Shown here piece by piece: positions 29,940 to 31,563 of a stretch of DNA of 38,336 nt. The notes under the pieces were generated by a model that saw nothing but the letters and a program-made list of their open reading frames with translations, was not told the DNA's origin and made no database searches. Source of the stretch: Desulfuromonadales bacterium (GTDB lineage: Bacteria; Desulfobacterota; Desulfuromonadia; Geobacterales; Pseudopelobacteraceae); contig JAENWA010000047.1 of assembly GCA_016650295.1 (NCBI GenBank), positions 1-38,336 on the forward strand, in the 5' to 3' direction. A program made the translations under genes and the position numbers. Position 1 is the stretch's first letter. The number at the start of each line of letters is the position of its first letter.

Positions 29940-31151
29940 CTACCAGGAGTGGTTCCCGTGGCAGGAGTTGGAGCAGGAGCGCGACGTAGCATTCCAGCCG
30001 ATGGTGGTGGTCAGGTTCTTGACACCGTTATTGTGCGTCGCAGCAGTCACTGTCGTGGTGCTGTAACCGGACCCGTGGCAGGTGGCGCAGGCGACATTCT
30101 TGCTTTTATGGGTCGAATGGCGGCCGTTTGCGGGAGGAATGGCGTGGCAGCTTCCACACGTTGCAGCCGGGGCCGGTGTCGAAGGCGCTGCAACTCCAGC
30201 CAGAGCAGTAGCAATGGAGTTTATCTGGGTTGCTGTAAGGGTTGAAAACGATCCCATGCCGCCGGTATTACTGTTAATAGCCGTCTGGATACGGGCCGCC
30301 GTTGCACCGGCCTTGGCGGATGATGCGAGGGCACCGTGGCAGCCTGCACAATCGGCTGTATAGAGGGTCGCCCCATCAGTGACCGGGGTCGGCGTAGGGG
30401 CCGGGGTCGGTGCAGGGGTCGGTGCAGGGGTTGGTGCAGGGGTTGGTGCAGGTGCAGGAACCGGTGTACTGGTTGGATTCAATGCAGTTACGATTGCCAG
30501 CTGCTGGCCACTGCTCAGGCTCGCAAACATGCCCATGCCTCCGGTATTGCTGCCGATAGCGGACTGCAGGCGGGCGAGAGTAACGCCGATCTTGCGGGAG
30601 GTGGCCAGTGCACCATGGCAACTGGAACAATTGGCTGTGTAAAGGGCTGCGCCGTCAACTGCAGGTGCTGGCGTCGGCGTCGGAGTTGGAGTAGGTGCTG
30701 GCGTCGGCGTCGGCGTCGGAGTCGGAGTCGGAGTCGGAGTCGGTGCTGGTGCTGGTGCCGGTGCTGCCGTAGCAGCCGCAGGGTTATTGACTGCATCAGC
30801 GATTGTCTGGAGGTTAGCGTCGCTCAAAGAGGTAAACCTGCCCATACCGCCAAAATTTGCGGCTATTGCTCCCTTGATTTTAGCAAGACTGGCGGGAGAA
30901 ACAATACTGGTAGCGGTGATAGCCGCGTGGCAACCTGCACAATTTGCAGCGTATAAGGCAGCACCGGCAGCCAGCTGAGCGGTTTGGGTGTCTGTGGGGG
31001 GAGTACCGGGGGTAGTTCCGGGATTTGATAATTGGGCCGCTGTACCTGACCCGGATCCTGAACTGCCGGATCCTGAACTGCCGCATCCTGACACCATACC
31101 AACCGCAAGTCCAACTGCTACCACAAACACTGCCTTCGTTTTTAAAATCAT
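29940..31151 (-). CDS. PgcA-like multihaem c-type cytochrome lipoprotein
   Basis: 403 residues. Lipoprotein signal with lipobox VSGC (C23), Ser/Gly linker, then three similar mono-haem domains with CAGCH (71-75), CSSCH (175-179) and CAGCH (268-272). Each is followed by a GGMG(x)F segment whose Met (103, 206, 299) is a likely distal ligand. The domains are joined by PT/PA-repeat linkers at 131-163 and 230-256. This architecture is that of PgcA, the extracellular electron-transfer cytochrome of Geobacter. Here a further domain follows with CGSCH (332-336), CATCH (355-359) and an unusual CSNSCH (393-398), plus HxxH histidines, giving six possible haems. The ATG is preceded by AAGGAGAGATT. Two GEMM riboswitches lie upstream. 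Outer-surface location is inferred. Confidence 0.9.
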   Translation of the reverse strand: MILKTKAVFVVAVGLAVGMVSGCGSSGSGSSGSGSGTAAQLSNPGTTPGTPPTDTQTAQLAAGAALYAANCAGCHAAITATSIVSPASLAKIKGAIAANFGGMGRFTSLSDANLQTIADAVNNPAAATAAPAPAPAPTPTPTPTPTPTPTPAPTPTPTPTPAPAVDGAALYTANCSSCHGALATSRKIGVTLARLQSAIGSNTGGMGMFASLSSGQQLAIVTALNPTSTPVPAPAPTPAPTPAPTPAPTPAPTPTPVTDGATLYTADCAGCHGALASSAKAGATAARIQTAINSNTGGMGSFSTLTATQINSIATALAGVAAPSTPAPAATCGSCHAIPPANGRHSTHKSKNVACATCHGSGYSTTTVTAATHNNGVKNLTTTIGWNATSRSCSNSCHGNHSW

Positions 31152-31188
31152 AATCTCTCCTTTGTCCGTTGTCGCCCCGGTATTGGAC

Positions 31189-31305
31189 AAAAAAATACCG
31201 GGACTTGATATCGAGCGATCGATATTTCGGCGACCCGGCTGTCTCGTTGAGACCCTTAGGCTTTCCGTCCCATCCTCGCGGATGGTTTAGTATTGTCGTG
31301 TATCT
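31189..31305 (-). ncRNA. GEMM riboswitch, gene-proximal copy, with overlapping terminator
   Basis: On the minus strand: AAACCATCC-GCGA-GGATGG hairpin (GNRA loop), then the core GACGGAAAGCC, a second hairpin GGGTCTC-AACG-AGACAGCC, and the closing CCGGGTCGCCG. This is the GEMM-I consensus, whose Ib subclass in Geobacter responds to cyclic AMP-GMP. The CCGGG of the aptamer can instead pair with CCCGG at 31202-31198, enclosing ATATCGA / TCGATAT and followed by seven T: a terminator. Ligand binding should free transcription of the cytochrome gene 38 bases downstream, an ON switch. Ligand identity is inferred from gene context and family knowledge. Confidence 0.88.
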
Positions 31306-31388
31306 ATTGATGCAGGCAATCCCTGCAGCCTAGAACAACAATCCCATCTTCTCTCCTTTCGTATGGGTTTGTCCTGCCTGATACATAC

Positions 31389-31505
31389 AAAAAAGCCGGG
31401 TGCGTAGTATCGAATGTTCGATATTTCGGCGACCCGGCTGTCTCGATGAGACCCTTAGGCTTTCCGTCCTACCCTTGCGGATAGTTTAGTATTGTCGTGT
31501 ATCTT
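31389..31505 (-). ncRNA. GEMM riboswitch, distal tandem copy, with overlapping terminator
   Basis: Same layout as the proximal copy, about 83 bases upstream of it. The first hairpin reads CTATCC-GCAA-GGGTAG, so pairs differ from the proximal copy yet remain complementary, which supports selection on structure. Core GACGGAAAGCC and closing CCGGGTCGCCG are identical. The terminator is stronger: AGCCGGGT pairs with ACCCGGCT, with TATCGA / TCGATA inside, then TTTTTTG. Two ON switches in series would make the cytochrome message need ligand at both, sharpening the response. Confidence 0.88.
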
Positions 31506-31534: not shown

Positions 31535-31563
31535 ACAATACCATTCAGGAACCAATAAATCAA
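31535..31563 (-). promoter_or_regulatory. Candidate promoter of the riboswitch-cytochrome transcript
   Basis: Minus strand TTGATT (31563-31558), 17-base spacer, TATTGT (31540-31535). It would start RNA some 20 bases before the distal GEMM aptamer. Both boxes are moderate matches; the surrounding sequence is AT-rich. Confidence 0.4.

What the first reader, a model, noticed from the sequence alone, without database searches (positions are those of the whole stretch)
31189..31505. Tandem GEMM riboswitches, each overlapping its own terminator
Both aptamers share their CCGGG closing strand with a terminator arm (ACCCGGCT in the distal copy, CCCGG in the proximal copy), so both should be ON switches. 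The first hairpin differs between copies by changes that keep pairing (CCATCC/GGATGG and CTATCC/GGGTAG). In series they would act as a two-input gate for one ligand, probably cyclic AMP-GMP, on a cytochrome for extracellular electron transfer.
Basis: partly seen in the sequence, partly recalled or inferred. Interest (0 to 1): 0.7.

Follow-up and report, generated by a model that had tools for sequence, protein, structure and literature searches.

The report
Paired cGAMP riboswitches with ribosome site
Two RNA sensors for what is probably the same bacterial signal molecule sit in a row in front of an electron-transfer cytochrome gene, an arrangement already known in Geobacter relatives; the unexpected part is a conserved ribosome-binding site with a five-codon reading frame between them.

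Summary
Two complete c-di-GMP-I (GEMM-I) aptamers lie in tandem on the minus strand, each sharing its last P3 strand with a terminator arm. Both have A at the ligand-selecting position, so cGAMP is the likely ligand. The genome encodes a GGDEF protein resembling known cGAMP makers, and the gene downstream is a PgcA-like lipoprotein cytochrome.
This is a known kind: tandem cGAMP ON switches before Geobacter cytochrome genes are published. 'Two-input gate' is the wrong phrase: two serial switches for one ligand make a steeper, tighter single-input switch (pseudo-cooperative).
New here is the spacer. It holds a Shine-Dalgarno sequence and a five-codon ORF (MGLLF), better kept in three species than the surrounding spacer. 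Across 59 tandem A20-type pairs, 18 of 54 non-redundant spacers hold a Shine-Dalgarno match of 7 or more bases (1.7 expected), 12 of the 18 without a start codon in range. Ribosome binding between the switches seems selected; its role is unproven.
Distal shared-strand terminators occur in 59 of 59 pairs, proximal ones in 43 of 59. In 8 of 14 terminator-less proximal copies (three groups) the aptamer's 5' flank pairs with the gene's Shine-Dalgarno region, suggesting added translational control.

The parts
31535..31563 (-). candidate promoter, TTGATT-17-TATTGT, upstream of the distal copy
   Evidence: Best sigma-70-like match upstream of the distal copy, 8 of 12; GTATTGT is invariant in three species (alignment); weak, and the consensus scan does not list it
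31425..31500 (-). distal GEMM-I aptamer; A20 at 31490
   Evidence: RF01051 47.6 bits; coordinates checked
31389..31439 (-). distal terminator; 5' arm shared with aptamer P3, U-tract 31394-31389
   Evidence: sequence; -22.1 kcal/mol
31353..31359 (-). Shine-Dalgarno AAAGGAG in the spacer
31330..31347 (-). five-codon ORF ATG GGA TTG TTG TTC TAG (MGLLF)
   Evidence: conserved in three species
31226..31301 (-). proximal GEMM-I aptamer; A20 at 31291
   Evidence: RF01051 47.3 bits
31189..31239 (-). proximal terminator, weaker; U-tract 31195-31189
   Evidence: sequence; -17.4 kcal/mol
31174..31204 (-). 11-bp post-terminator hairpin GUCCCGGUAUU/AAUACCGGGGC, which takes up the terminator 3' arm after read-through
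   Evidence: -16.9 kcal/mol; 0 of 300 shuffles pair as well; not a general feature of the family
31157..31163 (-). Shine-Dalgarno of the cytochrome gene
29940..31151 (-). PgcA-like lipoprotein c-type cytochrome, 403 aa, five CXXCH plus one CXXXCH, Pro-Thr repeats

Best explanation
One transcript carries two cGAMP-type (GEMM-Ib) transcriptional ON riboswitches in series. Without ligand, RNA polymerase stops at the distal terminator, and what leaks through is stopped at the proximal one. With ligand, P3 and P1 of each aptamer hold the strands that the terminator needs, so transcription reaches a PgcA-like cytochrome gene. Requiring the same ligand twice makes the response steeper and the leak smaller. 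Inferred, not shown: after the first read-through a ribosome loads on the conserved Shine-Dalgarno/five-codon ORF in the spacer and keeps that stretch of leader occupied. This would insulate the two nearly identical aptamers from each other and/or protect the untranslated leader from Rho or nucleases. The confidence given is for the serial double switch; the ribosome step is rated under the novel case.
For: Family membership. Shared-strand terminators in both copies and in 59 of 59 distal and 43 of 59 proximal copies of tandem relatives, the window included. A20 in both copies. 18 GEMM-I in the genome, of which 13 have A and 5 have G at this position. A GGDEF protein (L095) with Ser in place of the usual Asp, best PDB match 6d9m. 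The tandem is kept upstream of homologous cytochromes in G002 and G003, and the distal copies keep their own P2 type (CTATCC) apart from the proximal ones. The closest published case, tandem cGAMP switches upstream of omcAHG, lost detectable RNA by the second switch when the cGAMP synthase gene gacA was deleted (PMC6456294, passages). Spacer: 21 of 26 invariant columns in GAAAGGAG plus ORF against 15 of 58 elsewhere, Fisher p = 3.3e-6; ORF alone 13 of 18, p = 6.4e-4 (the blocks were chosen after seeing the alignment).
Against: No ligand binding or termination was measured. The promoter is not clearly identified (one search lists none upstream of the distal copy; 8 of 12 matches), so that one transcript spans both copies is inferred. 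Another tandem of this genome (C62) has a promoter match before each copy, so tandems need not be serial. The proximal terminator is weak and is lost in the sister species G003/L141, so the proximal copy may not terminate efficiently. The SD/ORF conservation rests on three species only.
Confidence: 0.82

Rival explanations
1. The spacer Shine-Dalgarno and five-codon ORF are a relic of duplicating a 'riboswitch plus gene start' unit and do nothing.
For: In another tandem of the same genome (C62) the distal switch is followed by a short ORF similar, as read by eye, to the start of the real gene. After proximal copies, SD-like sites often sit about 50-70 nt after the aptamer end both where they serve the gene and where they do not. 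Most spacers (36 of 54) have no SD match of 7 or more bases.
Against: At this locus the short ORF does not resemble the start of the gene downstream in any of the three species (by eye). SD and ORF are better conserved than the flanks. SD matches are enriched over shuffles in 10 of 23 spacer clusters against 0.85 expected, with 0 of 54 on the reverse complement, 3 of 54 in the reversed sequence and 3 of 53 in the region upstream of the distal copy.
Confidence: 0.35
2. The five-codon ORF is an attenuator leader peptide: a ribosome paused on it changes folding of the proximal switch.
For: A stop codon about 25 nt before the proximal P1 strand; five codons kept in three species.
Against: 12 of 18 SD-bearing spacers have no start codon in range, so ribosome binding rather than a peptide seems to be the common feature. 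The residues drift (MGLLF, MSMLF).
Confidence: 0.12
3. The pair is bi-mechanistic: the distal copy controls transcription, the proximal one mainly translation.
For: In 8 of 14 tandem relatives without a proximal terminator the aptamer's 5' flank pairs with the gene's SD region (z -1.8 to -3.6), against 1 of 32 with terminators; six of the eight share the same pairing sequence and are related. The proximal terminator is lost in G003/L141, though without such pairing there (z 0.27).
Against: In the window itself the proximal copy has a terminator with T7, and no flank:SD pairing stands out (z -0.36).
Confidence: 0.12
4. A true two-input gate in which the copies read different ligands (c-di-GMP and cGAMP).
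For: GEMM-I switches with A and with G at position 20 both exist in this genome (13 and 5), and position 20 is described as a selectivity factor rather than a hard filter (PMC9262584, passages).
Against: Both copies have A20 and nearly identical pockets; no tandem relative mixes A20 and G20 among the 117 of 118 copies that could be read, although the search pattern favoured the A20 type.
Confidence: 0.03

Closest known systems
Tandem GEMM-Ib (cGAMP) riboswitches of Geobacter sulfurreducens, e.g. upstream of omcAHG (PMC6456294, passages read)
   Same: Family, ON logic by terminator, two copies in series, outer-surface cytochrome genes, Hypr GGDEF synthase in the genome
   Different: A conserved SD/five-codon ORF between the copies, which the passages read do not mention; the omcAHG spacer itself was not examined here
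Pseudo-cooperative tandem c-di-GMP-I riboswitches (347 doublets, PMC9481103, passages read; Bc3-5 triplet, PMC4759541, passages read)
   Same: Same class, one ligand, one expression platform per aptamer
   Different: Probable ligand subtype; PMC9481103 counted tandems only where no intervening ORF was observed, whereas a five-codon ORF lies here
Bi-mechanism tandem riboswitches (SAM-II/SAM-V; PMC9481103, passages read)
   Same: 8 of 14 relatives without a proximal terminator appear to pair a transcriptional with a translational switch
   Different: In the window both platforms look transcriptional
Stab-SD, a start-codon-less Shine-Dalgarno that stabilises Bacillus mRNA (mechanism recalled; only a search listing seen)
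   Same: SD without a start codon inside a leader
   Different: Here it lies between two riboswitches, and in the window it has a start codon and a short ORF

Membership tests
c-di-GMP-I / GEMM-I riboswitch (RF01051) | covariance-model score over the gathering cut-off | tested here: met
   47.6 and 47.3 bits against 35
GEMM-Ib (cGAMP) subclass | A instead of G at the ligand-contacting position 20 | tested here: met
   A at 31490 and 31291; position assigned from the RF01051 alignment, Vc2 numbering recalled; the A/G rule is stated in PMC9481103. PMC9262584 calls this position a selectivity factor rather than a hard filter
GEMM-Ib (cGAMP) subclass | tighter binding of cGAMP than c-di-GMP | not testable with these tools
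   needs in-line probing
GEMM-Ib (cGAMP) subclass | cGAMP-making Hypr GGDEF enzyme in the genome | tested here: inconclusive
   L095 has GHLVGS where most others have GHxxGD (18 of 20 loci readable); best PDB hit 6d9m; that Ser marks Hypr enzymes, and that 6d9m is one, is recalled; activity not testable. L097, a weak partial GGDEF match, also has Ser there
Pseudo-cooperative tandem riboswitch | two complete riboswitches for one ligand, each with its own expression platform | tested here: met
   (same ligand inferred from A20 in both)
Pseudo-cooperative tandem riboswitch | no ORF between the copies (counting rule of PMC9481103) | tested here: inconclusive
   a five-codon ORF with SD lies between them; whether it is translated is unknown
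Pseudo-cooperative tandem riboswitch | steeper dose response than one copy | not testable with these tools
   needs transcription or reporter assays
Bi-mechanism tandem riboswitch | proximal copy controls the SD instead of a terminator | tested here: not met
   in the window the proximal copy has a terminator and no marked flank:SD pairing (z -0.36)

The most novel reading that the evidence does not exclude
Tandem cGAMP riboswitches carry a selected ribosome-docking site between the two switches: a Shine-Dalgarno sequence with no ORF, or with a five-codon ORF. A ribosome parked there lets two nearly identical aptamers fold independently and/or shields the leader, so a ribosome is a working part of a transcriptional double switch.
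Probability: 0.35. Interest if true: 0.65.

Novelty: new variant of a known kind. Interest (0 to 1): 0.42.

Why it matters
Tandem c-di-GMP-I riboswitches are reported to be the most numerous same-class doublets and triplets (PMC9481103, passages); in the passages I read, the spacers get no role of their own. If ribosomes dock between the copies, models of how serial riboswitches fold and terminate need a new component. The terminator-less proximal copies would also add combined transcription-plus-translation control to cGAMP signalling, which governs metal respiration in Geobacter.

Tried and rejected
Different ligands for the two copies: rejected, both have A20. Post-terminator hairpin as a family-wide 'lock': rejected, only 5 of 54 distal and 5 of 36 proximal copies reach p < 0.05; it stands out in the window's proximal copy and a few others. 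The five-codon ORF beyond the genus: the pattern was found in 3 of 141 genomes of the order, all at this locus, with 0 control hits; the fourth genome of the genus, G001, has no hit. Clustering spacers by gapped identity failed (everything joined) and was replaced by shared 11-mers. An internal promoter in the spacer: no convincing match, but the distal promoter is weak too, so this is not decisive. The 16S 3' end was not found in the window's genome; one of 20 relatives showed GGATCACCTCCTTT.

The first Fisher test (16 of 54, p = 2.8e-5) counted one column twice and left out the five bases between SD and ATG; the corrected figures are those.

Rows dropped: 5 of 59 spacers at least 90% alike to another were left out of the SD count, leaving 54. 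L131 and G002's L077 are the same sequence, as are L141 and G003's L051. L123 and L132 end too soon after the proximal copy to judge its terminator. In one search, 13 of 59 rows had no gene found by a crude rule. The 52 loci were chosen by a pattern that fixes the A20-type core and a spacing of about 190-220 bases, so the A20 count is not independent evidence and other spacings are under-represented; several come from the same genome. The 7 added rows come from the window, its genome and relatives. Listings were capped.

Full report
Observation. On the minus strand, Rfam finds two c-di-GMP-I (GEMM-I) aptamers at 31500-31425 and 31301-31226, 47.6 and 47.3 bits against a gathering score of 35. 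Their starts are 199 bases apart. Each is followed by a hairpin whose 5' arm is the last strand of the aptamer's P3 helix, and then by a T-run: AGCCGGGT/ACCCGGCT with T6 in the distal copy, GCCGGG/CCCGGT with T7 in the proximal one. Folded alone the hairpins give -22.1 and -17.4 kcal/mol; the terminator fold beats the forced aptamer fold by 14.7 and 9.0 kcal/mol, ligand not counted. The inner part of each terminator also takes the UAUC that can form P1 with GAUA (by eye). So aptamer and terminator exclude each other, the geometry of an ON switch.

Ligand and gene. The Rfam alignment places A where c-di-GMP binders have G (31490 and 31291), the known mark of cGAMP binders (rule as stated in PMC9481103, passages; PMC9262584 calls the position a selectivity factor rather than a hard filter, passages). 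The genome holds 18 GEMM-I matches, 13 with A and 5 with G at this position. Of 20 GGDEF loci, 18 showed a readable motif. L095 has GHLVGS, Ser in place of the usual Asp; its 353-aa protein matches GAF-domain phosphodiesterases in its N-terminal half and, best, 6d9m in its GGDEF half. L097, a weak partial GGDEF match, also has Ser there. That this Ser marks cGAMP synthases is recalled. The gene downstream encodes a 403-aa protein with a signal- and lipobox-like start (by eye), Pro-Thr repeats, five CXXCH and one CXXXCH. It matches cytochrome families and two PDB chains named 'Lipoprotein cytochrome c' (8qj6, 8qjg). It resembles PgcA in design as described in PMC5732950 (passages); PgcA itself was not aligned.

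What is known. PMC6456294 (passages) reports 17 GEMM-I riboswitches in G. sulfurreducens, several cases in tandem, all genes behind GEMM-Ib switches declining when gacA, the cGAMP synthase gene, is deleted, and RNA lost by the second switch of the omcAHG tandem. PMC9481103 (passages) counts 347 c-di-GMP-I doublets and 12 triplets and calls same-ligand serial pairs pseudo-cooperative. PMC4759541 (passages) shows a triplet to be more stringent and digital than a doublet or single. PMC12452182 (passages) finds c-di-GMP riboswitches enriched in Thermodesulfobacteriota and Deinococcota, in tandem as well as single. The finding as given is therefore a new member of a known kind, and 'two-input gate' should read 'one input, two checkpoints'.

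The spacer. Between the copies lies AAAGGAG, five bases, then ATG GGA TTG TTG TTC TAG. The same arrangement stands in two sister species, MGLLF in G003 and MSMLF in G002, at distances of 8 and 7 bases, upstream of homologous cytochrome genes with the same tandem. A pattern for it hits 3 of 141 genomes of the order, all at this locus, with no hit for the reversed control; G001, of the same genus, has none. In the three-species alignment, GAAAGGAG plus the ORF has 21 of 26 invariant columns, the rest of the spacer 15 of 58 (Fisher p = 3.3e-6); the ORF alone has 13 of 18 (p = 6.4e-4). The blocks were chosen after seeing the alignment. The distal copies of the three species share the CTATCC type of P2 and the proximal copies the CCAT type, so the duplication is probably older than the species.

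Wider survey. A pattern for two A20-type cores about 190-220 bases apart, run over a collection of 84,980 genomes, gave 52 loci, by title from Geobacter relatives or unclassified Deltaproteobacteria, except one titled 'Proteobacteria bacterium'. With 7 rows from the window, its genome and relatives this makes 59. Distal shared-strand terminators: 59 of 59. Proximal: 43 of 59; two of the 16 without are cut short. After dropping 5 near-identical spacers, 18 of 54 hold a match of at least 7 bases to the anti-SD complement AAAGGAGGTGA, against 1.7 expected from shuffles, and 11 of 54 hold 8 or more; 36 of 54 have none that long. By shared-11-mer clusters it is 10 of 23 against 0.85. Controls: 0 of 54 on the reverse complement, 3 of 54 in the reversed sequence, 3 of 53 upstream of the distal copy. 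Of the 18, 3 have ATG at a usable distance (the window and its two sisters), 3 have TTG or GTG, and 12 have no start codon 4-12 bases on. So what is common is a place for a ribosome to bind, not a peptide. Mean unpaired probability of the SD is 0.74 in the window but only 0.43-0.68 in the seven others computed, so predicted accessibility is no more than moderate.

Proximal copies without a terminator. In 8 of 14 the aptamer's 5' flank pairs with the gene's SD region (z -1.8 to -3.6 against shuffles); among 32 with terminators only 1 does (cut-off set after seeing the values, 13 of 59 rows without a gene found). In one group (L102, L105, L120, L126, L134, L140) CCTCTCGTGGC or a close variant pairs with GCTACGAAAGG, and the same flank can pair with the P1 3' strand (UGUCGCG) in the ligand-bound form (read by eye). 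L099 and L122 do the same with other letters. This looks like a translational ON switch behind a transcriptional one. The window's own proximal copy is not of this type (z -0.36), nor is L141, which lost the terminator (z 0.27).

Mechanism. Shown by sequence: two complete platforms with mutually exclusive aptamer and terminator folds, same ligand-selecting base, conserved order, conserved SD/ORF. Inferred: serial action on one transcript, steeper response, ribosome docking between the copies. For the last I think most likely a ribosome on the spacer insulates the two nearly identical aptamers or protects the leader. A relic of duplication is about as likely and is not excluded. In the window an 11-bp hairpin can take up the proximal terminator's 3' arm after read-through (-16.9 kcal/mol); this is not a general feature.

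Literature limits. Searches on tandem riboswitches, short ORFs, Shine-Dalgarno and leader peptides listed, judging by titles and abstract starts, nothing that describes an SD or mini-ORF between tandem riboswitches of one class. Only open-licence papers are held, and the two founding cGAMP papers were not available.

Noticed in passing
L134, L140, L102, L105, L120, L126, L099, L122 (proximal copies): Tandem cGAMP-type switches whose proximal copy lacks a terminator and whose 5' flank pairs with the gene's SD region: candidate transcription-plus-translation doublets.
   Followed up: partly
G000:C62:5907-6263 (L012, L011): A second tandem in the same genome in which each copy has its own promoter match (TTGACA-17-AATAAT, 11 of 12): probably two parallel units rather than a series; the distal copy is followed by a short ORF resembling, by eye, the start of the real gene.
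   Followed up: partly
L103, L104, L106, L112, L145, L146, L063 (G015), L017 (C15): SD with no start codon 4-12 bases on, 55-67 nt after the proximal aptamer, although the gene starts further downstream or was not located.
   Followed up: partly
window 31204-31174: 11-bp hairpin with most of the proximal U-tract in its loop, about as stable as the terminator; a GGGG about 11-14 bases before the gene's SD is kept in the three aligned species.
   Followed up: partly
L004, L005 (own genome): Two GEMM-I copies with A at position 20 but G rather than C next to it, unlike the 11 other A20 copies: possibly another specificity.
   Followed up: no
window 9681-9504 (-): 6S RNA, 51.4 bits.
   Followed up: no
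window 4661-4587 (-): Group II intron match, 41.9 bits, just over the cut-off of 40.
   Followed up: no
L095 1471-2532 (-): GGDEF protein with Ser at the usual Asp position: candidate cGAMP synthase of this organism.
   Followed up: partly
L018 (G000:C99:668-742) and G000:C99:171-482: A GEMM-I copy with A20 near a stop-interrupted match to the same cytochrome family.
   Followed up: no
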